A stretch of 64,000 nt of DNA from an uncultured Lysobacteraceae bacterium (GTDB lineage: Bacteria > Pseudomonadota > Gammaproteobacteria > Xanthomonadales > Xanthomonadaceae), in NCBI GenBank assembly GCA_902825775.1, contig CADECF010000006.1, positions 198,068-262,067 on the forward strand, read 5' to 3'. Below, in pieces: positions 48,353-59,620 of the stretch. A program made the translations under genes and the position numbers. The notes below the pieces were generated by a model. It was not told the DNA's origin and ran no database searches. It saw only the letters and a list, made by a program, of their open reading frames with translations. Numbering within the stretch: position 1 is the stretch's first letter; every line of letters begins with the position of its first letter.

Positions 48353-48374
48353 GCTTTTGCTTTTTGTTTTTCCC

Positions 48375-48595
48375 TTCTCCCACCGGGAGAAGGTGCCCGA
48401 AGGGCGGATGAGGGTACGGCGAAGCGACGTAGTTCCACTTGCGTCGCTCCGACGAACCCTCACCCCAACCCCTCTCCCGATGGGAGAGGGGCCAGTTTCC
48501 CGTCATCCCGGCGCACGCCGGGATCCAGGGCAACCGACTAAACTGACACCACGCTGCGCAAGCCTGGATTCCGGCTTCCGCCGGAATGACGACTT
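48375..48595. repeat. Palindromic repeats between purH and purD
   Basis: CTTCTCCCACCGGGAGAAGG (short hairpin), paired arms around GAGGGTACGGCGAAGCGACG and CGTCGCTCCGACGAACCCTC, then CCCCTCTCCCGATGGGAGAG, and finally a family C pair (CCCGGCGCACGCCGGGATCC; CCGGCTTCCGCCGGAATGAC). No gene is seen in the gap. Confidence 0.85.
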
Positions 48596-48613
48596 AAGGA
48601 GACGACGTAGTCC

Positions 48614-49891
48614 ATGAAAATCCTCGTCATCGGCTCCGGCGGCCGCGAACACGCCCTCGCCTGGAAACTCGCGCAATCGCCACGCGTGGCCGAAGTGCTG
48701 GTCGCGCCCGGCAACGCCGGCACCGCCACCGAAACCAAATGCCGCAACGTGGATGTCGCCGCGACCGACATCGACAGCCTGCTCGCATTGGCCAGGAACG
48801 AAAGCGTCGCCGTCACCGTCGTCGGCCCCGAAGGCCCGCTGGTGGCCGGCGTGGTGGACCGCTTCCGCGCAGAAGGGCTGCGCATCTTCGGCCCCACCGC
48901 CGCCGCGGCGCAGTTGGAAGGCAGCAAGGCCTTCGCGAAAGATTTCCTGGCCCGCCACGGCATCCCCACCGCGCATTACGCGGTGCACACGAACGTGGAC
49001 GAGGCGCTCGCTTACGTACGCGAGAAAGGCGCGCCGATCGTGATCAAGGCCGACGGCCTGGCCGCGGGCAAAGGCGTGATCGTAGCGATGGAACTGGGCG
49101 AAGCCGAAGCGGCGATCCGCGACATGCTGGCCGGCAACGCGTTCGGCGCGGCCGGTTCGCGGGTGGTGGTCGAGGAATTCCTGGACGGCGAGGAAGCCAG
49201 TTTCATTTCGATGGTGGACGGCAAGACCGCGCTACCGATGGCCACGTCGCAAGACCACAAACGCGTCGGCGACGGCGACACCGGCCCCAACACCGGCGGC
49301 ATGGGCGCCTACTCGCCCGCGCCCGTCGTCACGGCCGAGGTGCACGAACGCGTGATGCGCGAGATCGTGGAACCCACCGTGCGCGGCATGGCCGGCGACG
49401 GCGTGCCCTTCACCGGCTTTCTGTATGCGGGCTTGATGATCGACAAGCACGGCGCACCGAAGGTGATCGAATTCAACGTGCGCTTCGGCGACCCGGAAAC
49501 GCAGCCGGTGATGATGCGCCTGAAATCGGACCTGCTGGACCTGGTCGACGCCGCCATCGACGTCCGCCTGCACGACACCACCGCGCAATGGGACCCCCGC
49601 CCCAGCCTGGGCGTGGTGATGGCCGCCGAAAACTATCCGGGAACCCCGCGCCTGGGCGACCCGATCAGCAGTTGGGACGTGCCCGACGTCCCCGACACCA
49701 AGGTCTTCCACGCCGGCACCAAGCTGGTCGATGGCCAAGTCGTCACCGCCGGCGGGCGGGTGTTGTGCGTGTGCGCGTTAGGCGAGAGCGTGGCTGAGGC
49801 GCAGAAGAAGGCGTATGCGGAGGTAGGAGGAATTTCCTGGCAGGGAGAATTTCATAGGCATGATATCGGGTGGAGAGCAATCGTTCGATGA
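48614..49891 (+). CDS. purD: Phosphoribosylamine-glycine ligase
   Basis: 425 aa. It makes GAR from phosphoribosylamine, glycine and ATP in purine synthesis. MKILVIGSGGREHALAWKLA, VTVVGPEGPLVAGVVD, the ATP-grasp IVIKADGLAAGKGVIVA near residue 140, QDHKRVGDGDTGPNTGGMGAYSP and EFNVRFGDPETQP are canonical, and the C-terminus ends FHRHDIGWRA as in the family. The last ~75 bases are visibly AT-richer than the rest of the gene, so the junction with the accessory block lies near or within the 3-prime end. Confidence 0.97.
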   Translation: MKILVIGSGGREHALAWKLAQSPRVAEVLVAPGNAGTATETKCRNVDVAATDIDSLLALARNESVAVTVVGPEGPLVAGVVDRFRAEGLRIFGPTAAAAQLEGSKAFAKDFLARHGIPTAHYAVHTNVDEALAYVREKGAPIVIKADGLAAGKGVIVAMELGEAEAAIRDMLAGNAFGAAGSRVVVEEFLDGEEASFISMVDGKTALPMATSQDHKRVGDGDTGPNTGGMGAYSPAPVVTAEVHERVMREIVEPTVRGMAGDGVPFTGFLYAGLMIDKHGAPKVIEFNVRFGDPETQPVMMRLKSDLLDLVDAAIDVRLHDTTAQWDPRPSLGVVMAAENYPGTPRLGDPISSWDVPDVPDTKVFHAGTKLVDGQVVTAGGRVLCVCALGESVAEAQKKAYAEVGGISWQGEFHRHDIGWRAIVR

Positions 49892-49904: not shown

Positions 49905-51212
49905 ATGAAGGACATTCACCTTAAGCGCTGCCAGGTATCTACTCCACCTGAAATCGTGGAATTAACTTGGCAATTGGTAGAGAAGCTTAGGCCGAATGAA
50001 GTCTTCGACTCCGTTTTGGATTTAGGCTGCGGGGACGCTCGCTTCAGCGCTTCTGCGCATCGCTATCGAAAATACACCGGCATTGAGAGAGACCCCGCCA
50101 AGCTCGCTCTGGCAGCTTCTTCCAAATCTATTCGACTTGTTAAGGCTGACGCCCTATCTTGGCGTGGCTCACGATACTCGTTATGTATCGGAAACCCGCC
50201 TTATATTCGGCACCACGGGCTGGAGCCAGCCTGGCGCGATGACGCCATAGCCTCCATAGAACATGACGGCGGGCCGCAGCTTAAGAGAACTGCGAATGCA
50301 TTCATTATTTTTCTTGCGAAGGCATTGATAAGTACTCGGCCGAACGGCGTGATTGCGCAAGTAATACCATACGAATGGGTGACCCGCCCAAGCGCGCTAG
50401 AACTTCGTGAGTACATCAAAGAGCAAGGATGGGATGTTTATGTATATCGCTTTGAAGCGGATATTTTCCCAACTGTTCTAACAACGGCTTCGATCACGCT
50501 GATCGACAAAAATTCGACTAGTGGTAAATGGGTTTTTGGACAGATAGGTAGCGATCATAAAATTCGGACAGTAGCCCATCCCTCTGGAACTCGTTCAAGA
50601 GTCCTTGCATATTCGGATGGCCACAAGAAAGCTCGCGCAATACGTGGCCTGAGTCCTGGAGGGCAGGATATCTTCCTATTGACCGAGCAACAGCGTTTGT
50701 TATTTGGCCTGAAGAAACGCATAGATGTAATTCCTGCAATTGCGTCGCTACGGTGCCTTAAGGAAGAGTTAGAAGTGCTCGATAAGGCAACGTTTGAGAG
50801 CCTATACGTCGATGCCGGCCGAGGCTGCTGGTTGATTCGTACAGATCGCGAGACCTTAAGCCCACAATTGCGTAAATATCTTAAATCGCTGGGGGACAGC
50901 TGGAAGCGCTATACAACCTGCACCCTTCGCGAGACATGGTGGCGTTATGTTGCCCACCCCATCCCTCAACTGCTGGTATCCTCCGGATTCACTAAGCGCG
51001 CACCTAAGGTACTAGTGAACAAGGTGGGTGCCATGGCGCTAGGGTCTGTTTATGGGGTCATGGTGAAAGGTCGAGAAAGAGATGCTCGTTCATTGGCCAA
51101 GGGGCTGCGCCACTATGACTACCAAGCACGACTCGTTCACCATGCCAATGACCTAAAAAAACTGGAAGTTCGTCAACTAAACTCCGTTATTTCTCAAGTC
51201 TTAGAGCGTTAA
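49905..51212 (+). CDS. DNA N6-adenine methyltransferase-like protein (first gene of the accessory cassette)
   Basis: 435 aa from ATG 49905 (MKDIHLKRCQVSTP); an ATG at 49860 would overlap the end of purD. The SAM motif VLDLGCGDARF is near residue 34, and the catalytic gamma-class amino-methyltransferase motif is GNPPYIRHHGL near residue 89. A TaqI/Eco57I-type target-recognition-like C-terminal half follows (WLIRTDRETL, CTLRETWWRYV, KAPKVLVNKV-like sequence). It should methylate adenine in a short DNA site. No restriction endonuclease is adjacent. Codon use is distinctly AT-richer than in purD, suggesting transfer. The GHKL gene starts 12 bases after its stop. Confidence 0.85.
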   Translation: MKDIHLKRCQVSTPPEIVELTWQLVEKLRPNEVFDSVLDLGCGDARFSASAHRYRKYTGIERDPAKLALAASSKSIRLVKADALSWRGSRYSLCIGNPPYIRHHGLEPAWRDDAIASIEHDGGPQLKRTANAFIIFLAKALISTRPNGVIAQVIPYEWVTRPSALELREYIKEQGWDVYVYRFEADIFPTVLTTASITLIDKNSTSGKWVFGQIGSDHKIRTVAHPSGTRSRVLAYSDGHKKARAIRGLSPGGQDIFLLTEQQRLLFGLKKRIDVIPAIASLRCLKEELEVLDKATFESLYVDAGRGCWLIRTDRETLSPQLRKYLKSLGDSWKRYTTCTLRETWWRYVAHPIPQLLVSSGFTKRAPKVLVNKVGAMALGSVYGVMVKGRERDARSLAKGLRHYDYQARLVHHANDLKKLEVRQLNSVISQVLER

Positions 51213-51224
51213 ATCAGGCTGGGG

Positions 51225-53576
51225 ATGTTTATGCCTCATAAGCTCAAGCAAGCGCATTTTCATATTAACTCCGCTTTATTCGAGGAGCTTGGCGAACGCC
51301 TGGTCAGTCGGCCAGAGATCGCGCTGGCCGAATTAATTAAAAACAGTTATGACGCCGACGCGCATGCGTGTGAAATTGAATTTTCAGACCAAAATATCAT
51401 TGTTCGAGATAACGGGAACGGCCTAACCGAAACTCAATTTTTAAACAACTGGATGGTTGTAAGCTCTCAAGAAAAAGCAGCGCAGCGCTACTCAGCACGC
51501 TATCAACGACTAATGGCTGGATCCAAAGGCGTGGGTCGTTTCTCTGCGCGCTTTCTGGGCGACCACCTGATTTTAGACACTGTGTCGCAGCACCCTAAAA
51601 CGGGCAAGAAGTCGCGCTTGCAGGCCACCTTCGATTGGACTCAAATTGCTCGTCATAAGGACCTAAAAGATATTGTAATAAAGTACTCCGTTGACCCTGT
51701 TGCGCAAACCACGAAAACAGGCGCCACCTTGATAGTGAGTCGCTTACGAGATCATGTGAAGGATTTACCAGCGGACCGAGTACGTACAGATGTACTCAAG
51801 CTTGTCGATCCATCCGCAGGCTTGGAAATTCCAAATTTTGCCGAGAATACTTACAGTCGGCGCAATACAGATCCCGGCTTTAAAGTCATCTTCCAAATGG
51901 CGGGATCTGATGAAACAGCCGATACCAATCTGGCAGAGTCGATTCTCTCAGCGTATGTAGGACGTATTCGCTTGGAGGTAGACGCTCAGGGCGATGCTGA
52001 CTTTAAGGTCTACTGGAAAGATCACACCAAGCCATTAGCTAACTTAAAGTTCAATATTAGAAAATACAGTAAGTCCTTTACAGCCAAATCTCTGCGCACA
52101 GAGGATGGTGAACGGGATAATCGGGGCCTACCAATAGTACTAAAAGATGTACAGAACTTGCCTTTAGCCACCACTGTTGGCAGCCCAATCTTTGCTGATA
52201 TCCGCTTTTTTCCAAATCGAAAAGGCACTTTTTTAGGCCTTCCTGTCCATGGTCGGCGCGCCCTATCTTGGGTAAAAGATAATGCGGGAGTGGCTATTGT
52301 CGATCATGGATTCGTGGTACCCGCTTACGCTCATATAAACAGCGATTGGCTCGGCATTGAAGCCTCAAAAGCTGTAAATGAACGTAAATGGCAGTCGATC
52401 ATTACTCCTGCCGTTTATCCCATGACCGACGCTGAAGCAAAGAGTACTCAGCTTAATCCAATGCTGGCATTACCGCGACTAAGTCAGCTGGTGGGTCGAA
52501 TCTATATAACTACTGGAAAGCCTCAAACTGGAACATCCGATGACGGTTGGCTGCAGCCCAACATGGATCGTGAATCACTTCGCGACAATGGAGCCTATCG
52601 CCTGCTGTGGCACCTGGTTCGTTTTGGAATTGAGGCCATCGCGCATTTTGACCGGGAAGTCCGTTTAGATGCTGAGGAGGAAAAGCAGGAAAGAGTTCGC
52701 CAAGAGGCTAAAGCGGCCCTAGCGGCAGCCATTACTCAAGTCAAGCGTTCAACTGAAATATCCGACGACCACCGATCGATCATCCTTGAGCGGCTTAAAG
52801 AAGCCTCCGAACGTGTTACAGAATCGGAAACCTATGAACGAAATTCGCGCATCGCCCTGGAGCTTATGTCACTCATGGGTGTTATGGCGAGATTTATGAC
52901 GCACGAGTTTGATAAGGCATTAGATGCTCTTCAATCGGCAGCTGTTGAACTAAAACGCCTTGCAAAGGCCCATCCGTCACTAGCTAAATCCGTTGATCTT
53001 ATTCTTGCCAACGAACAGCTCTTGTCGGAACAAGCCGAGTATATGAAGCTGTTTATTGCCGCTTCTCGCGATCCAAAGATCACTTCGTTTAAAGCGCGCG
53101 CACAGATCAATGTAGCCATATCAACTCTCGCCACGTTAGCTGATGAGTATGGCGTCGACATCAAGATCGAAGCCGACGCAAAACTGGAAGGACCAGCAGT
53201 ACCGTTAGCCGCTTATCATGGCGTGATTATTAACCTCGTCTCCAATGCGATGAAAGCCCTTGTTGCAAGCACACGCACAGAGAGGACAGTCCGTGTAATT
53301 GCTTTCAGTGAGGCAGGAAAACATGTATTGATATGTGCGGACAATGGCGTTGGAATTCCCGATTACTTACAAGATCGCATCTGGGACCCTCTCTTTACGA
53401 CCACCCACGCCGGAAATGAAAACAGCCCACTCAATTCCGGACTAGGCCTTGGCTTGGCACTTGTTCGCCGCGTTGTAGAAGCAGTTAATGGCCGCATTGA
53501 ATTAATGCGCACACCTCCGCCAGATAGCACCACCGCGTTTCGTACTTATTTACCCATTGAGAGGGATGAGACGTGA
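51225..53576 (+). CDS. Double-GHKL protein: Hsp90/MutL-like ATPase fused to a histidine-kinase core
   Basis: 783 aa. ATG 51225 and ATG 51231 are both possible; GGGG lies just upstream. The N-terminal ATPase has an N-box ELIKNSYDADA (36), DNGNGL (62) and GSKGVGRFSA (99), as in Hsp90/MutL/MORC-type GHKL proteins. A ~350-residue middle region follows, then a charged coiled-coil (about 470-530). The C-terminus is a histidine kinase: candidate phosphoacceptor H560 in FMTHEFDKALDAL, N-box NLVSNAMKAL (670), DNGVGI (706) and GLGLGLALV (739). No membrane segment is seen. The stop overlaps the response-regulator gene by 4 bases, so phosphotransfer to it is likely (inference). The input is unknown. Confidence 0.87.
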   Translation: MFMPHKLKQAHFHINSALFEELGERLVSRPEIALAELIKNSYDADAHACEIEFSDQNIIVRDNGNGLTETQFLNNWMVVSSQEKAAQRYSARYQRLMAGSKGVGRFSARFLGDHLILDTVSQHPKTGKKSRLQATFDWTQIARHKDLKDIVIKYSVDPVAQTTKTGATLIVSRLRDHVKDLPADRVRTDVLKLVDPSAGLEIPNFAENTYSRRNTDPGFKVIFQMAGSDETADTNLAESILSAYVGRIRLEVDAQGDADFKVYWKDHTKPLANLKFNIRKYSKSFTAKSLRTEDGERDNRGLPIVLKDVQNLPLATTVGSPIFADIRFFPNRKGTFLGLPVHGRRALSWVKDNAGVAIVDHGFVVPAYAHINSDWLGIEASKAVNERKWQSIITPAVYPMTDAEAKSTQLNPMLALPRLSQLVGRIYITTGKPQTGTSDDGWLQPNMDRESLRDNGAYRLLWHLVRFGIEAIAHFDREVRLDAEEEKQERVRQEAKAALAAAITQVKRSTEISDDHRSIILERLKEASERVTESETYERNSRIALELMSLMGVMARFMTHEFDKALDALQSAAVELKRLAKAHPSLAKSVDLILANEQLLSEQAEYMKLFIAASRDPKITSFKARAQINVAISTLATLADEYGVDIKIEADAKLEGPAVPLAAYHGVIINLVSNAMKALVASTRTERTVRVIAFSEAGKHVLICADNGVGIPDYLQDRIWDPLFTTTHAGNENSPLNSGLGLGLALVRRVVEAVNGRIELMRTPPPDSTTAFRTYLPIERDET

Positions 53577-54664
53577 CAACGACAGTGCTAGTTATCGAAG
53601 ACGAAGGCGATAAAATCTCTGAATTTTCGCGACAGCTTGAGCATGAAGCAGAGCTGCAGTATTTGACGCCTTCTGATGTAGGCCTATTAAGCACACTTCA
53701 AGCAGAAGGTGGCGCGATTGAAGAGCAGCTAAAGAATCTTTTTGCTCGGATCATCCAAGAGAATGGCATCGATCTAGTAGTGCTAGACACGGACTTGTCT
53801 CGTGATGCTGAGTTTCAAACACACTCAACCTACCGAACAGCGTTATTCGACCTAGGTTTTCCGGTATGCCGGTATCAGAAAGGCGGAAGCGCGACCCGGT
53901 TTACTCCATTAGCTCGATTACGACAGACCGTCATTGACGGAAGCAGCGCCATCTGGCTTCGTCGCGAACTTGTTAGTCGGGATGTAGCTAACTTAGCACC
54001 ATGCTTAAAGGATATCGTAGCTGGTTTTGCAATTATCCAAGAGCAGTTGCAGGCAGACAATACCCTGCTAGCAGGAATGCATAGTCCAGCTGATGTGATA
54101 GCGAGAATTATGGGCGCTCCGGCCCAGGCAGAGGATTTTATAGGTTATGCCTCGCAGAACCTTACATTATTTGGCGAATCCAATGAGACGCTTCACGAGG
54201 GAAATATCGATCCGGCTCGACACTTTGCTACCCGTCTCGGTTATTGGCTACATAATTTTATCCTCACCTTCCCAGGCCCTTTGTTAACTAGACGTCAGGC
54301 GAGCGCATTCTTAAACGCAAAATTCGCTCCGGAACATGCAGATGTTTTGAACCGTGTTATTGCCAACTGTGCTTACGCAGGGCCTTTCATGAATCTCGAG
54401 CCAAGATATTGGCGCTCCGGCCTACTTGATCTTCTTGATAATTGCGGCGGTGATTTAGCCAAACACCCTGACGTACCGGCCAACAGCTTCGAGCGTATCG
54501 ATTCAGATAATTCAGAACGCGCCGCGTATGTGTGCCTACTCAGCGAGAGCTTCATTACTTCAGAGCAAGCAGCACCCACTCCAGACTGGATCCCTTCAGG
54601 AGCAACCGAGGCAAAATTCAGTCAGGAAAAAGTCGACGAGCTTGGGCCATTGGCAGGAATCTAA
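53573..54664 (+). CDS. Response-regulator-like protein with novel C-terminal domain
   Basis: 363 aa from GTG 53573, overlapping the kinase stop. The N-terminal ~130 residues look like a receiver domain: VLVIEDEGDK with the acidic pocket at about 8-10, LVVLDTDLS with the candidate phosphoacceptor aspartate near 66, and a basic RYQKGG segment near 102 that could give the conserved lysine. The remaining ~230 residues (including DNTLLAGMHSPADVIARIMG, ARHFATRLGYWLHNFILTFPG and YWRSGLLDLLDNCGGD) match no DNA-binding or enzymatic output domain that I recognise. The stop overlaps the next start by one base (TAATG). Confidence 0.8.
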   Translation: MTTTVLVIEDEGDKISEFSRQLEHEAELQYLTPSDVGLLSTLQAEGGAIEEQLKNLFARIIQENGIDLVVLDTDLSRDAEFQTHSTYRTALFDLGFPVCRYQKGGSATRFTPLARLRQTVIDGSSAIWLRRELVSRDVANLAPCLKDIVAGFAIIQEQLQADNTLLAGMHSPADVIARIMGAPAQAEDFIGYASQNLTLFGESNETLHEGNIDPARHFATRLGYWLHNFILTFPGPLLTRRQASAFLNAKFAPEHADVLNRVIANCAYAGPFMNLEPRYWRSGLLDLLDNCGGDLAKHPDVPANSFERIDSDNSERAAYVCLLSESFITSEQAAPTPDWIPSGATEAKFSQEKVDELGPLAGI

Positions 54665-55428
54665 TGACTGAATTTGCCCGCTTTGAACGCGCTTGCACCG
54701 AGATCGCCAGACATACAACCCAAATTGCTAGGGCGAACAATGCAGAAGTATTCCAATCGCATCCGCGAAGCTTGACCGGAAGTGATGCGGCTGAACGAGT
54801 ATATGATTTTCCTTCTCCAACACTATTATGGAATATGCCATCACGCGGCTCGAGCCGGAGAACAAACAATCGGGCAATTTTTGTCAATGGCGCATTCGTT
54901 CTTCGTGATGACAGGCTTCGAAAGTCGTATGCGCACATGGAAATATATTCGTTTAGGCGGAATGCGGACCGTGTGTTGCTCTCACTTGTAGACGCCTTCC
55001 ATTTTGATGTAGAAACAATTCCACAAACGAGGTTCCACCCAATTTTTCACGTGCAGAGGGGACGTCCTCATGGACCTCAATGGACTGACGATGTGCGTGC
55101 ACGCCTAGTTTCAACCGCCGCTCGAATTAGTTCAGAGAACGTCACCATCGATACCCAGCATTGGCAAAGCGGCGCCGACTGCGTTCGCATACCTACCCCA
55201 CAGATGGACTACTTTACAACGCTAGTTTCCATTGTCGCGGACTCTTTTGGGGGCGTTAGTGATCGTCGCGAAGTAATGGGGGCCTTTACAGCCTTGGCGC
55301 GTTTCGTATTACAGCTACAAACAACGGAATTCAGGCTTAGTCAATCTAGTGAGCTGCATGTACGTCAAACACAATGGGCTGGTGAATCTTCCGCTGCATG
55401 CGTGTGGTACGAAGAGGTCAAACCATAG
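54664..55428 (+). CDS. Unknown protein, last gene of the methyltransferase/GHKL/response-regulator cassette
   Basis: 254 aa from ATG 54664, overlapping the response-regulator stop by one base. There is no signal peptide, membrane helix or family that I recognise. Conserved-looking stretches are FDVETIPQTRFHPIFHVQRG (about 118-137) and RIPTPQMDYFTTLVSIVADS (about 179-198). Its position as the last, translationally coupled gene suggests an effector or partner of the sensor pair (inference only). AT-rich codon use matches the three upstream genes. The convergent gene at 55470 begins a different, high-GC context. Confidence 0.7.
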   Translation: MTEFARFERACTEIARHTTQIARANNAEVFQSHPRSLTGSDAAERVYDFPSPTLLWNMPSRGSSRRTNNRAIFVNGAFVLRDDRLRKSYAHMEIYSFRRNADRVLLSLVDAFHFDVETIPQTRFHPIFHVQRGRPHGPQWTDDVRARLVSTAARISSENVTIDTQHWQSGADCVRIPTPQMDYFTTLVSIVADSFGGVSDRREVMGAFTALARFVLQLQTTEFRLSQSSELHVRQTQWAGESSAACVWYEEVKP

Positions 55429-55469: not shown

Positions 55470-56168
55470 TCAGAGATCGTTTTTTGTTTCCGAGCGCTGG
55501 GGCGGGACATCGTGCGACCAAGCCAACACCTCGTTGGTATAGGTCTCCACCACCACGCTGAAAGGCTGCCCATCGGCCGCTGTAAGTACCGCTTGGTGCT
55601 GCAGCAAGCTATGTGGGACGGCCAACTTGCTGGGGCGAGGCGGCGCAGGTGGCAACATCTCCCAACCCTCAGGCAGCGGCGACCACAGCAATCGAGCGGT
55701 CAGCGTCGAACGGTGGAAGTGCAGCGGCTGCACCACCTTGCCGAAGGGCGTGTCGGTGCCGTTGAGCATCGCATTCATCGCTGGGGTGAGCCGGTTCGGG
55801 ATATACCAGTTGTCGGCTTCCGACAGAACGTGGCCGCCGCAGGCGAGTTGTACGCGGCGGTAGGCGATCGGCTCGTTCGGCGCCGCGCTTAATGCGCTTC
55901 GCAAGTCTTCCGGGAGCGGCTTGTCAGCACCGCGCACCCGCGTAGCCGTCACTTTGGCCGGCGAGGCCATGCGGTGCGCGGCGCACCAGCGCTCCAACGT
56001 GAGCGTCGCGCTGTCGTGGCTGAGCAAATCGGCGTTCAAGGTTTCGAGCAAGGCCAGCACTTGGGTCCGCGCCAGCGGGGTGTCGGGCCATGCAGGTGCG
56101 CATCGCGCGGCGATCGGCAACGCCGATAGCGCTACGCAAAGCCCAAGAAGGATCCGCCGGATAGCCAT
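55470..56168 (-). CDS. Exported protein with chorismate lyase/UTRA-like fold signature
   Basis: 232 aa with a signal peptide (about residues 1-23, ALPIAARCA before PAWPDTPL). The body reads YRRVQLACGGHVLSEADNWY, IPNRLTPAMNAML, DTPFGKVVQPLHFHR and a C-terminal HQAVLTAADGQPFSVVVETYTNEVL, resembling the UbiC/UTRA fold (DUF98-type). Being periplasmic, it is unlikely to make 4-hydroxybenzoate for ubiquinone, and its function is unknown. GC content is high, like the core genome. Its upstream region (56181-56282) is a diverged copy of the leader in front of the LplT-PlsC gene. Confidence 0.75.
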   Translation of the reverse strand: MAIRRILLGLCVALSALPIAARCAPAWPDTPLARTQVLALLETLNADLLSHDSATLTLERWCAAHRMASPAKVTATRVRGADKPLPEDLRSALSAAPNEPIAYRRVQLACGGHVLSEADNWYIPNRLTPAMNAMLNGTDTPFGKVVQPLHFHRSTLTARLLWSPLPEGWEMLPPAPPRPSKLAVPHSLLQHQAVLTAADGQPFSVVVETYTNEVLAWSHDVPPQRSETKNDL

Positions 56169-56441: not shown

Positions 56442-57092
56442 CTAACGAGTGAGATAGTCCTCGGCGTAGAAACTTTGCATGAAGTCCCGTATCGCATCTT
56501 CTGACCGATCCTTTGATCGCTTCAAAAGATCGGCCCGGGCTTTTTTGTATTCGTCAGATTTTGTGAACTCTTCAAACTTACGGTTCTTGTATTTGTTGAA
56601 CTCTACACCGTTCATCGAAAGACGTTCTATTACGCGACCTGACGAGATACGTATGATCTGATAATGGTCATAAGTTGACCCGTACCCCATATGCACATAC
56701 TCCGTCATCTCCCCGTCTGGAATGACCAAGGTCCCGGTATACCAGTCGGCTACAACTTTCGGCGTCCTTGGGAAAAGATCAGTAAGTATGCTCTTCAGAG
56801 CCTCTACGTCGCTTTCGACCTTGATGCGAATCGTGGCGTCCTTTAGCACAAGGCGATCTTCATCTATCGCCCAGGTGGCGATGTAGCCCCGCCAGTTGGC
56901 TGTTGATACTAGCGCTTCTTTTGGCGGGATCCATTCTCGACTGCCGAGATAACTCTCAAGCGGGTTGGTGTTTAGCGCATACTCCTTTCCGTCGATGATT
57001 ATGGTGTCGGGAACTTGAGCGGTGGCCTCTGCAGAACGTGGAATAAAAGCTAAGAAGATCGCTACAAATACGACTCGAAATAAATTTGACAT
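56442..57092 (-). CDS. Exported protein, candidate immunity protein 2 of the VirB6-toxin block
   Basis: 216 aa from ATG 57092-57090 (MSNLFRVVFVAIFLAFIPRS); a longer start at 57152 masks the signal peptide. Signal peptide about 1-23, cleaved after SAEA. The mature part has IIIDGKEYALNTNPLESYL and STANWRGYIATWAIDEDRL, a pattern that I recall from bacterial hypothetical proteins found beside secreted toxins. A basic C-terminal helix (KARADLLKRSKDRSED) follows. It is the last gene of the leftward VirB6 unit, 69 bases after its neighbour, AT-rich, and ends at a hairpin terminator. The immunity role is inference. Confidence 0.75.
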   Translation of the reverse strand: MSNLFRVVFVAIFLAFIPRSAEATAQVPDTIIIDGKEYALNTNPLESYLGSREWIPPKEALVSTANWRGYIATWAIDEDRLVLKDATIRIKVESDVEALKSILTDLFPRTPKVVADWYTGTLVIPDGEMTEYVHMGYGSTYDHYQIIRISSGRVIERLSMNGVEFNKYKNRKFEEFTKSDEYKKARADLLKRSKDRSEDAIRDFMQSFYAEDYLTR

Positions 57093-57161
57093 TGCTCTGC
57101 TCCGCTGAAATTTTACGATGTTTCCCGTTACTCGTTCTGCTCTACCATGCACTAGTTAACA

Positions 57162-57698
57162 CTAAATACCTTCTTCTTTTCTTGGACTAACAGTTACTTT
57201 GTGCAAGCAATCAGCAGCTATATCTAAAAACACAAAGTAGTAGCTGCCCCAAGGCTGCTTGGATTGGACGAGCGTGTCATCGAACGGCGTATGTCCTTTT
57301 GGCGTGTCTACAATAATCAGCGGCCCATACTTCTCTTTTACCTCTTTGTATCTTATGCAGATGCCATGGACTGTCAGGCCTGCATATTGGAATCGGCCTG
57401 ATCTGTCGAGCCACAGATTGAGGCCTGAAACGCCCAAGTCATTACTTAGCTCAAAGGGTTCCCCCCTCAAAACGACACCATTGCCGTCTTGACTAGGTTT
57501 TTCGAATGTGGAAACACCTAACGCATTTTCGAAAGAAGCTTTCGTTAATGGCATTTTCTGATCCATTGAATCGAGCAAGGCCCACAATTTGACCCTGCTT
57601 GCCGAATCGACGTCTTTTGGTTGCTCAGTTGCATTTGCCGCAGAAACTGCGATCAACAGTACAGTTGCCACTAAGCTAGTGACCGTAGCGGGCGTCAT
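57162..57698 (-). CDS. Exported protein, candidate immunity protein 1 of the VirB6-toxin block
   Basis: 178 aa from ATG 57698-57696 (MTPATVTSLVATVLL); the start at 57737 would hide the signal peptide. Signal peptide about 1-22 (LIAVSAANA before TEQPKDV). The body has SRVKLWALLDSMDQKMPLTK, LGVSGLNLWLDRSGRFQYAG and two cysteines (ICIRYKEV; ADCLHKV) that could pair in the periplasm. I recognise no family. It overlaps the end of the VirB6-fusion gene by 23 bases, so the two are translationally coupled, as expected of toxin and cognate immunity protein. Low GC matches the toxin tip. Confidence 0.75.
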   Translation of the reverse strand: MTPATVTSLVATVLLIAVSAANATEQPKDVDSASRVKLWALLDSMDQKMPLTKASFENALGVSTFEKPSQDGNGVVLRGEPFELSNDLGVSGLNLWLDRSGRFQYAGLTVHGICIRYKEVKEKYGPLIIVDTPKGHTPFDDTLVQSKQPWGSYYFVFLDIAADCLHKVTVSPRKEEGI

Positions 57699-59478
57699 AT
57701 GCTTCTCCGTAGTACTCTCGATAACTCTTCTTGGCATCTTTTCTCACCGATACGTACTCGTAATCTCCAAAAACGGCACCTATCGACGCCCTTAGTCCTA
57801 TGTCATCGCCGTCCACCAGATATTGGTCATAGGCGGCGTTGTACTTATCATGATTCGCCGCTGTTCCATTCAGACCGATATCCATCTTTCCGTGCGTCGA
57901 CTCCAATATTTCTCTTCTGATTTGGATGTTCTTCACCATTGCTGCAGCTTCGTCGCAAAGTGCGGCATCGATGTATGCCTCTCGCGAGGAATAATCAGCC
58001 CGGTATTGGTATTTGGCATGTCCGACTTCGTGCACAAGCGCACGAATCGTCTCTTTGTCATTACCTTCCCAGCGGCCATCAAGCAGGATTGCCGGGTGCG
58101 GGCCGCTTCGATCCGTAATCGAGCCTTTACCCGTCTCGCCGAAGCTAATCTTCCAGCTCTCTTTCTGTAGTTCGATTAGGTCTCGCTGAAGTGTGGGCGA
58201 TAGCCCTATTACTCTGTCTACCTGCTCACCCAGACCGATGGTTATGCTAGAAACATTGCTCGTGCCCGCGTCCCGCAACTTTGCGAGGTTATCGGGTAAG
58301 TGATCGCCTTTTCCAGCTTGGTCGTCCAGTGACGCTGTTGCATTCGGGTACCGTTCCAAGAACGACTTCGTATCCTCTGCCGGCTTGACCCGATCCCCAT
58401 GCGCTTCCGTACGTGCAGGCGTAGCCACGCGGTGCGCATAAGTTTGCACAGGCGCGTGCTGCCGCTCGCCCGGATCTGTGTACGCACGTGCATACGTATG
58501 CGGCTGTGAGGCGTGCGCCATACTGCTGCTAGCCGCCCCAGCATGGCCGAACGCCGAATACGGGCTGAAATCCCCTAGCAGCCCCTTGAAGAGCTTCGCC
58601 GCAGCCATCGGGGCACCAATGATCAGGGTCGTCAACAGCAGCCCCAGGCCGCCCTGCTGCATCGCCAGGCTATTGACGCCTTCGACCGACGCTCCTGTCA
58701 GCTTGGCCGTCCAGAAGGTCGCCGCCACGGCGCAAATCATGTTCACCGCGATCGCGGCCATGACGTGCAGGACTGATAGGGTGAACAGCACGCCGACCAG
58801 GTGGTTCAGCCAGCCCCAGAACAGTGCCTTGGTCTGAGGAAACAGCAGGCACAACACGAACAAGGGCGCGAAACCCAGGCACAGGGCCAGCATCACCTTG
58901 TACATCAGTAGCAAGGCGCCGGCGACGACGGCCGGGCCGCCCATACCTACGGCGACGAAGCCCATATTTCGATACTTGGCGTTAAGCAGGGCGTGGTTGT
59001 CGCCGGCCTGGATTTCGTCGATGAATCCGAAGGCCATCTGCATGTAACCCAGCATCCGGTCGATGCCTTCGAAGACATCGCCGCCGTGGCCGGTGATGAC
59101 GCGGTGGACCATTTGACCTAGGTCATGGTCGACCCATTCGTACAGCGAGCCGCCGCCCAGGTACGCCCCGGTGGCGATAGTCGTGATCACCAGCACCTGC
59201 GTCATCTCGGTCACGAAGGCCGCCATCGAGCGCTGCGTGCGGCCGATGAGGATGCGGAACCCTTCGATCAGGAACCACAACGTCAACAAGGTCGTTGCTG
59301 CGGCACCGACCCAGACCAGGGATCGACCGAATAGATCGATACCGAATTGCCGGACCATGCTGTCGAGGTACTCGTAGAGGACGCGGAAAGCGATGTAGCC
59401 GCTGGCGTCGTCCAGTGGGCCGCTGTGTAAGGCGGTCAATCCGTCGAACAAAAATGAAATCGCCGAAGGCTCGGCCAT
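57676..59478 (-). CDS. Orphan VirB6/TrbL-like protein with C-terminal HEVGH metalloprotease-like domain
   Basis: 600 aa from ATG 59478-59476 (MAEPSAISFLFDG), with GGGAG upstream. Residues about 1-305 are a VirB6/TrbL-type inner-membrane channel part with six or so helices (SLVWVGAAATTLLTLWFLIEG, FVAVGMGGPAVVAGALLLMY, VLHVMAAIAVNMICAVA, GLGLLLTTLIIGAPM). A His/Ala/Thr-rich linker (about 305-375) leads to a soluble C-terminal domain with a zincin motif, HEVGH at 483-487 and a possible third ligand E510 in LCDEAAA. The N-terminal coding part is high-GC and the C-terminal part AT-rich. No other type IV secretion genes are in the window. A secreted polymorphic toxin is the favoured reading. Confidence 0.82.
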   Translation of the reverse strand: MAEPSAISFLFDGLTALHSGPLDDASGYIAFRVLYEYLDSMVRQFGIDLFGRSLVWVGAAATTLLTLWFLIEGFRILIGRTQRSMAAFVTEMTQVLVITTIATGAYLGGGSLYEWVDHDLGQMVHRVITGHGGDVFEGIDRMLGYMQMAFGFIDEIQAGDNHALLNAKYRNMGFVAVGMGGPAVVAGALLLMYKVMLALCLGFAPLFVLCLLFPQTKALFWGWLNHLVGVLFTLSVLHVMAAIAVNMICAVAATFWTAKLTGASVEGVNSLAMQQGGLGLLLTTLIIGAPMAAAKLFKGLLGDFSPYSAFGHAGAASSSMAHASQPHTYARAYTDPGERQHAPVQTYAHRVATPARTEAHGDRVKPAEDTKSFLERYPNATASLDDQAGKGDHLPDNLAKLRDAGTSNVSSITIGLGEQVDRVIGLSPTLQRDLIELQKESWKISFGETGKGSITDRSGPHPAILLDGRWEGNDKETIRALVHEVGHAKYQYRADYSSREAYIDAALCDEAAAMVKNIQIRREILESTHGKMDIGLNGTAANHDKYNAAYDQYLVDGDDIGLRASIGAVFGDYEYVSVRKDAKKSYREYYGEAYDARYGH

Positions 59479-59620
59479 CTTCCCGTCTCCCTTCCATGTG
59501 TTGGAAGTTGAAAAGACGGAGGCCATGCAGAGCGATGGCCACGCCCATCAATCAAATTGACAGAGCGCACCGCGTCACGGCTACGGTAGGTTGAGGTGCA
59601 ACCCCAATGGCGAGCGTCGC

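What the first reader, a model, noticed from the sequence alone, without database searches (positions are those of the whole stretch)
49905..55428. Four-gene AT-rich cassette: DNA methyltransferase, double-GHKL kinase, response-regulator-like protein, unknown protein
The sequence shows four same-strand genes with gaps or overlaps of 12, -4 and -1 bases, all visibly AT-richer than the flanking core genes and wedged directly after purD. A modification methylase coupled to a two-component-like pair and an unknown last gene looks like a mobile defence or genome-surveillance module. It is not a standard restriction-modification system (no nuclease), and it does not match Detocs (no membrane or TPR sensor, different third gene), DISARM, BREX or the MutL-type MZA system as I know them. 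The defence role is inference.
Basis: partly seen in the sequence, partly recalled or inferred. Interest (0 to 1): 0.88.

Follow-up and report, generated by a model that had tools for sequence, protein, structure and literature searches.

The report
Methylase-coupled phosphorelay defence cassette
Four neighbouring genes combine an enzyme that marks the cell's own DNA with a two-step signalling relay and a protein of unknown kind; the set recurs in bacteria and archaea and is most likely an untested immune system that recognises foreign DNA by its missing marks.

Summary
In detail: four co-directional genes (gap 12, overlaps 4 and 1) at 49905-55428, 49.1% GC in a 64.9% window: a TaqI-like adenine methylase, a GHKL ATPase fused to a histidine kinase, a receiver-domain protein and an unknown protein (P4). 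The kinase-receiver-P4 trio is a real unit. Of 80 kinase relatives fetched, 74 have a receiver-type gene next and 72 a P4-sized third gene. Phospho-His is kept in 72 of 72 kinases, phospho-Asp in 75 of 75 receivers, one P4 His in 73 of 73. In the window's clade, 24 of 24 loci have an adenine methylase nearby; other clades carry adenine or cytosine methylases or DndC/DndB-like genes. Behind purD, three congeneric genomes carry other restriction or ABC-3C systems. Closest prior art is the HEF_HK/Response_reg_2 'two-component-like' family of 2021 (PMC8011034, read in part; no defence test there). Ours differs in response regulator, methylase type and the added P4. P4 resembles DUF2290, a defence-associated family, over one stretch. 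Best reading: modification-linked immunity using a His-Asp phosphorelay; P4 as effector is inferred. New variant of a known kind.

The parts
49905..51212 (+). Gene 1: TaqI/Eco57I-like N6-adenine DNA methyltransferase (435 aa; NPPY motif; C-terminal half unassigned, probably target recognition)
   Evidence: PF07669 2.6e-8, residues 89-186; M.TaqI structures 3.4e-12, residues 10-203; 37-58% identity to the methylases of 18 other cassettes
51225..53576 (+). Gene 2: N-terminal GHKL ATPase fused to a histidine kinase (783 aa); of the paraMORC kind by the literature, not tested against paraMORC models here
   Evidence: HATPase_c_3 4e-20 (residues 30-147), HATPase_c 5.8e-20 (666-779), HEF_HK 0.013, below its cut-off (551-595); E36, N40, D43, D62, H560, N670 kept in 72 of 72; N-terminus like BbrUII/HgiDII restriction enzymes 6.6e-16
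53573..54664 (+). Gene 3: response-regulator-like protein (363 aa); receiver domain 1 to about 165, mostly helical C-terminal part 168-363, fold not tested on its own
54664..55428 (+). Gene 4 (P4): 254 aa, no solved relative found; motif H-x-D ... H-P-x-[FY]-H-x-Q ... R
48614..49891 (+). purD, core gene at the left edge; variable site behind it
   Evidence: purD found in 4 of 4 genomes of the genus, with different genes behind it
55470..56168 (-). first ORF beyond the cassette, opposite strand, not part of it
   Evidence: ORF list

Best explanation
A mobile, modification-coupled defence system in which restriction is run by a His-Asp phosphorelay. (1) Gene 1 methylates adenine in a specific site and marks host DNA as self. 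(2) Gene 2, a GHKL clamp, inspects DNA; on unmodified or otherwise foreign DNA its N-terminal ATPase state switches the C-terminal kinase on and H560 is phosphorylated. (3) The phosphate passes to D72 of gene 3. (4) Phosphorylated gene 3, through its C-terminal domain, activates P4, the likely effector: its invariant His/Asp cluster looks like a metal-dependent active site, perhaps a nuclease or other hydrolase. Shown: gene set, order, co-divergence, conserved catalytic-type residues, exchangeable modification gene, variable-site location. Inferred: methylation protects self, the signal is unmodified DNA, the direction of signalling, P4 as effector.
For: Of 39 viral-contig loci with a relative of the kinase, 18 have receiver hits and 13 P4 hits, same order. 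Catalytic-type residues invariant. All six protein pairs co-diverge in 19 loci (r 0.84-0.94, permutation p 0.0005). Around 23 clade-A cassettes the only flanking gene family in more than two loci within 3 kb is a methylase. The modification gene is replaced rather than lost: 19 loci with gene-1-type methylase, 26 with another adenine methylase, 10 with C5 methylase (7 of them with Vsr beside or fused), 7 with PAPS-reductase/DndB-like genes, of 75. The site behind purD holds RM or ABC-3C in the three other genomes of the genus. P4 core of clades B+D resembles DUF2290 (hhalign 91.7%; 40 column shuffles at most 1.2%; reversed 0.15%); helicase+DUF2290 inhibits T7 (PMC9122126, passage).
Against: No functional data for this set or, in what I read, for its cousin. 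No nuclease or known toxin family detected in the four proteins and no usable fold match for P4, so the effector step is guesswork; an unlinked effector is possible. In the window protein residue 102, Ser or Thr in 39 of 75 aligned receivers, is Gln, and the Lys of canonical receivers was not located, so phosphotransfer could be weakened. P4 of clade C is linked by position and motif only: hhalign 57% to A, 1% to B, 8% to D, 62% to A+B+D, and one of 40 column shuffles scored 99. The DUF2290 link fails for clade A alone (1.2%), covers 56 columns and rests on 4 DUF2290 sequences. 13 of 75 loci show no same-strand modification gene by my motif test; 2 of these reach a contig end and 5 have an opposite-strand NPPY gene. 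C5 and DndC-like calls rest mostly on motifs.
Confidence: 0.6

Rival explanations
1. A true two-component regulator that controls expression of a restriction-modification system or other genes, as proposed in 2021 for the cousin family; the methylase would be its client or its epigenetic target. (The rivals overlap in part with each other and with the best explanation, so the odds do not add up to 1.)
For: Intact kinase and receiver; this is the published suggestion for HEF_HK/Response_reg_2, and the founding Pectobacterium genes were transcriptionally activated under stress (PMC8011034).
Against: Around clade-A cassettes no restriction enzyme recurs that it could regulate; gene 3 of the window has no helix-turn-helix hit, and of 44 relatives one has an OST-HTH hit at 0.014; the trio stays together with very different modification genes.
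Confidence: 0.15
2. A restriction-modification system whose nuclease is simply unrecognised (P4 or the C-terminal part of gene 3), with the kinase part acting as a structural ATPase and no real phosphotransfer.
For: Kinase N-terminus relates to BbrUII/HgiDII restriction enzymes; P4 has an invariant His and His/Arg plus Asp/Glu positions; DUF2290 likeness of relatives.
Against: H560 and D72 would not need to be invariant in 72 of 72 and 75 of 75 proteins if phosphotransfer were absent.
Confidence: 0.15
3. A DNA repair or mismatch module tied to methylation, as MutL-like ATPases and Vsr in some relatives might suggest.
For: Vsr beside or fused to C5 methylase in clade C; MutL model hits for relatives L043 and L068.
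Against: Patchy presence of gene 3 relatives (2 of 299, 2 of 369, 2 of 398 genomes, the window's own included each time), site shared with RM and ABC-3C, no Vsr by motif in clade A.
Confidence: 0.05
4. An abortive-infection system whose cue is phage damage or nucleotide pools rather than unmodified DNA, the methylase guarding the host against its own sensor.
For: Signalling layout like Detocs in outline (recalled); fast-evolving P4 (median identity 0.19 in 19 loci).
Against: Constant pairing with a DNA adenine methylase in clade A (24 of 24) points to DNA as the cue.
Confidence: 0.2

Closest known systems
HEF_HK / Response_reg_2 two-component-like system (PF19191/PF19192; PMC8011034)
   Same: HATPase_c_3 + H-box + HATPase_c kinase next to a receiver-like protein; DNA methylase neighbours; proposed paraMORC relation.
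   Different: Response regulator not matched by PF19192 (P0003; 0 of 44 aligned family members, window included) and not alignable by hhalign (at most 5%); HEF_HK only 16.4 bits against cut-off 24.1; adenine instead of C5 methylase; a conserved P4 gene, not seen in the 4 PF19192 loci inspected (L103 ends soon after its regulator gene); the PF19192-type kinases branch apart from the other 69 with support 100.
BbrUII/HgiDII family restriction enzymes with TaqI-type methylases (NF050001)
   Same: N-terminal GHKL domain homologous (6.6e-16); that their partner is an adenine methylase is recalled.
   Different: Match covers residues 13-187 only, 58 bits against a cut-off of 550; kinase half instead of their C-terminal part; extra receiver and P4.
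paraMORC RM operons (PMC2292703, passages) and Shedu type I-D VcSduA (PMC12137116, passages)
   Same: GHKL ATPase in an RM-like operon.
   Different: paraMORC3/VcSduA carry a C-terminal nuclease; here a histidine kinase plus receiver and P4.
Helicase + DUF2290 (PMC9122126, passages)
   Same: P4 relatives share the RFDFD...HPxSH...RIP stretch with DUF2290.
   Different: No helicase; P0004 itself is not hit by PF10053.
Detocs
   Same: Kinase-to-receiver layout in a defence operon (recalled; one search gave only a listing).
   Different: No TPR and no nucleosidase family found by Pfam; a methylase and P4 are present instead.
DndCDEA-PbeABCD (PMC6459918, PMC10853773, passages)
   Same: Modification plus a four-gene set; some relatives of the trio pair with DndC/DndB-like genes.
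   Different: PbeA is an HKD-nuclease helicase and PbeC an ABC ATPase.

Membership tests
HEF_HK/Response_reg_2 TCS-like | HATPase_c_3 N-terminal and HATPase_c C-terminal in one protein | tested here: met
   4e-20 and 5.8e-20
HEF_HK/Response_reg_2 TCS-like | HEF_HK domain (PF19191) over its cut-off | tested here: not met
   16.4 bits, cut-off 24.1
HEF_HK/Response_reg_2 TCS-like | Adjacent Response_reg_2 (PF19192) protein | tested here: not met
   no PF19192 hit for P0003 or any of 44 aligned members; hhalign at most 5%
Type II restriction-modification (BbrUII/HgiDII type) | DNA methylase in the operon | tested here: met
Type II restriction-modification (BbrUII/HgiDII type) | Full-length restriction enzyme match or nuclease domain | tested here: not met
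   NF050001 58 bits of 550, N-terminus only; no nuclease family by Pfam or NCBIfam; PADLOC REase_II hits lie in the GHKL part
Two-component phosphorelay | Conserved phospho-His in kinase and phospho-Asp in receiver | tested here: met
   72 of 72 and 75 of 75
Two-component phosphorelay | Actual phosphotransfer | not testable with these tools
   needs biochemistry
Detocs | TPR sensor kinase | tested here: not met
   no TPR family in P0002 at E<=1; the feature itself is recalled
Detocs | Receiver fused to nucleosidase effector | tested here: inconclusive
   no Pfam match in P0003 C-terminal part, but residues 168-363 were barely tested by fold
DndCDEA-PbeABCD | HKD-helicase PbeA and CxC ABC ATPase PbeC | tested here: not met
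   domains of the four genes against the description
DISARM / BREX / MZA / MADS | Signature genes beyond a generic methylase or GHKL match | tested here: not met
   PADLOC: mad2 7.2e-16 and weak PglX on the methylase domain, MzaB 0.0033 on GHKL only, nothing for genes 3 and 4 (25 of 27 hits of gene 1 were shown)
DUF2290 (PF10053) | Pfam match over cut-off | tested here: not met
   P0004 none; 1 of 38 aligned members at 0.14
DUF2290 superfamily (distant) | Profile-profile similarity above shuffled controls | tested here: inconclusive
   91.7% for clades B+D and 89.5% for A+B+D against 4 DUF2290 rows, shuffles at most 1.2%; 1.2% for A alone, 73% B, 85% D, 0.2% C against 6 rows

The most novel reading that the evidence does not exclude
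Immunity that reads missing DNA modification through a histidine-aspartate phosphorelay: a GHKL clamp that is itself a histidine kinase reports unmodified DNA to a receiver protein, which fires an enzyme of unseen fold (P4, distantly like DUF2290). The sensing-and-firing trio is a general cartridge that different modification enzymes (m6A, m5C, phosphorothioate-type) plug into.
Probability: 0.4. Interest if true: 0.9.

Novelty: new variant of a known kind. Interest (0 to 1): 0.7.

Why it matters
Restriction-modification is normally methylase plus nuclease. Here no nuclease is recognisable and a phosphorelay stands in its place, so self/non-self reading of DNA could be turned into a reversible, amplifiable signal. 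Relatives of the trio occur in many bacterial phyla and in haloarchaea and a Hodarchaeota bin and sit beside several modification chemistries, so one tested member would explain a large unassigned family, give the 2021 HEF_HK family a testable function, and give P4 and perhaps DUF2290 a role.

Tried and rejected
PbeABCD was suspected after DndC/DndB-like neighbours appeared; rejected on gene content. PADLOC and PHROGs gave no system for genes 3 and 4. Sequence search of plasmids for P4, of E. coli genomes with the DNA of genes 1, 2 and the start of 3, and of phage records with the kinase found nothing; the plasmid collection held one relative. Fold searches for P4 in PDB and BFVD gave nothing usable; this does not prove a new fold. 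L043 (gene-1-type methylase plus GHKL protein without kinase, receiver or P4) was looked at as a possible nuclease fusion; beyond its GHKL part it matched nothing. One column shuffle in the P4 clade-C control scored 99, so that comparison is not used as proof. Rows dropped: L033 and the five clade-A loci without a gene-1-type methylase from the co-divergence test; L014 and kinases of 680 aa or less (L031, L056, L085 and others) from the tree; L100 (same as L099) and the short L107 from the second DUF2290 test. Clades A-D were my own groups before the tree; A and C came out as single clades, B needed 2 and D 3 changes. Literature searches for the arrangement found the 2021 cousin and the 2008 paraMORC paper as the relevant ones; the library holds hardly any bioRxiv papers and few subscription-journal papers, and defence models newer than PADLOC 2023 were not available.
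Full report
Observation. The cassette is 49.1% GC against 64.9% for the rest of the window, below all 191 same-length windows that do not touch it. It starts 13 bases after the end of purD. The window lies in a genome of 3.76 Mb; one relative of the same family, G330, appears from its matching contig length and cassette to be Xanthomonas massiliensis.

Is it a unit? Searches with gene 3 or 4 found the same four-gene order in a Paraburkholderia plasmid and in three genomes of three other genera of the family. It is rare: gene 3 relatives in 2 of 299 genomes of the order sample, 2 of 369 of the class and 2 of 398 of the phylum, the window's own genome included each time; P4 in 4 of 149 of the family, own included. 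Of these 80, 74 have a receiver-type gene directly after the kinase (55 by profile, 19 by position and length) and 72 have a third gene of P4 size after it (57 by a motif test, the rest by position and seen by eye). The 6 without a receiver gene are four cut by contig ends (L040, L065, L074, L091), L043 with an unrelated second half, and L044, whose receiver gene is split in two frames with a P4-like gene behind it. Of 39 loci with a kinase relative on predicted viral contigs, 18 have receiver hits and 13 P4 hits.

Conservation. Over 72 kinases longer than 680 aa (window included) E36, N40, D43, D62, H560, N670, N674 and G741 are invariant; over 75 receivers D72 is invariant and D10 is Asp in 72; over 73 P4-position proteins H129 is invariant, position 113 is H or R and 115 is D or E. 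All six protein pairs co-diverge over 19 clade-A cassettes, window included (r 0.843-0.942, permutation p 0.0005); P4 evolves fastest (median identity 0.19 against 0.41 for the methylase).

Clades and the exchangeable modification gene. A kinase tree of 73 rows puts the window in a clade of 23 rows with support 100, covering Pseudomonadota, Planctomycetota, Myxococcota, Acidobacteriota, Fidelibacterota and haloarchaea. P4 profiles link clades A, B and D (95-99.6%) and receiver profiles link A to B and D (99%). Clade C is linked less firmly: receiver 93% to A and 74% to B; P4 57% to A, 1% to B, 8% to D, 62% to A+B+D, with one of 40 shuffles at 99. Of 75 loci, 19 have a gene-1-type methylase and 26 another ORF with an adenine-methylase motif within 1 kb. 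Of 29 proteins scanned (these 26 and 3 chosen for other reasons), 25 hit Eco57I and 1 hit N6_N4_Mtase; the tally names no members, but L031 is the N6_N4 one. Ten have a C5 methylase by motif (Pfam-checked for L046 and L052), 7 a PAPS-reductase/DndC-like or DndB-like gene by motif (Pfam-checked for L071 and L092; L066 gave no Pfam hit), and 13 none on the same strand by motif. Of the 13, two reach a contig end and five have an opposite-strand NPPY gene nearby. In clade A all 24 loci have an adenine methylase near the trio: 19 of gene-1 type, L031, L035, L036 (815 bases downstream) and L037 of other types, and L021 an opposite-strand one known by motif and similarity only. Within 3 kb of 23 clade-A cassettes, the only flanking family found in more than two loci is a methylase, so no separate nuclease recurs with the system there.

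Place. The genus has four genomes in the collection, all with purD. Behind purD the window genome has this cassette, G358 a BglII-type endonuclease with an MT-A70 methylase and an integrase-core gene, G318 an ABC-three-component system (two of its three genes matched by Pfam), and G340 a type I restriction system. Three of three relatives thus carry restriction or ABC-3C genes at this spot, which is the best evidence here for a defence role, from a small sample.

Relation to what is known. Bellieny-Rabelo et al. 2021 (PMC8011034; text parts 1-4 of 7 and the Discussion read) described HATPase_c_3+HEF_HK+HATPase_c kinases adjacent to Response_reg_2 proteins, 91.6% linkage in 644 regions, with C5 methylases and Vsr. 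They suggested signalling that controls R-M; the founding genes were transcriptionally activated under stress, and I saw no defence test. I fetched four PF19192 loci (found in 4 of 150 genomes): C5 methylase by motif, kinase ORF of about 1000 aa, regulator ORF of 587-721 aa, Vsr in at least two, and no P4 seen, though L103 ends soon after its regulator gene. Their regulators do not align with ours (hhalign at most 5%) and their kinases branch apart from the 69 others with support 100. So the present set works on the same plan but is not a member. Iyer et al. 2008 (PMC2292703, passages) described GHKL paraMORC families in RM operons; the word receiver does not occur there. PMC8011034 is the only paper in the library that treats HEF_HK; one other names it once (listing).

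P4. Its core HFD...HPxFH...RIPxPxMD resembles DUF2290. Clades B+D against four DUF2290 sequences give 91.7% and A+B+D 89.5%; 40 column-shuffled versions give at most 1.2% and the reversed one 0.15% against B+D. Clade A alone, the window's own, gave 1.2% and clade C 0.2%. Helicase+DUF2290 inhibits T7 (PMC9122126, passage). This is suggestive only.

Mechanism. Most likely gene 1 marks self DNA, the GHKL-kinase clamp senses unmarked DNA, phosphate passes from H560 to D72, and the receiver protein releases or activates P4. The relay residues and gene set are shown; the cue, the direction and the P4 reaction are inferred. The relay could be weaker in the window protein, where Gln102 stands at a position that is Ser or Thr in 39 of 75 receivers. 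Overall confidence is 0.6 for a modification-coupled phosphorelay defence, lower (about 0.4) for P4 as the catalytic effector.

Noticed in passing
window 57676-59526 (-), with 57162-57737 and 56442-57152 (-): TrbL/VirB6-type gene (PF04610, 1.3e-22, residues 81-303 of 616) with a long C-terminal extension, followed by two small AT-rich ORFs (GC about 0.47); similar long genes stand at the same place in G358 and G318. Possibly a secretion-linked effector with partner genes.
   Followed up: partly
L122, L123, L124 (region behind purD): The site behind purD is variable in this genus: BglII-type endonuclease plus MT-A70, ABC-3C and type I RM in three relatives.
   Followed up: yes
L066, L071, L072, L080, L085, L087; L092: Clade-B trio behind a DndC-like PAPS-reductase gene (by motif; Pfam hit in L071) and an ORF of 1049-1077 aa further up (L071's has no Pfam hit; homology among the six not tested); L092 has a DndB/DpdB-like gene instead. 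A sulfur-based or other modification paired with the trio is possible.
   Followed up: partly
L054, L061, L051: AbiEii-type nucleotidyltransferase genes sit upstream of the kinase, with the methylase downstream of P4.
   Followed up: no
L043:6449-10448: Gene-1-type methylase next to a GHKL protein whose second half is unrelated to the kinase family, with no receiver or P4 found: a recombined or decayed copy.
   Followed up: partly
L031, L056, L085 (kinase), L044 (receiver): Kinase or receiver frame interrupted in these relatives, so some copies look decayed.
   Followed up: no
L035:12307-14394, L036:15087-17168: A related ORF of similar size near the trio in two haloarchaea, by eye like a helicase-type defence gene.
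   Followed up: no
window 48357-48617: Stretch between purH and purD whose reading frames look like dispersed repeat sequence (by eye).
   Followed up: no
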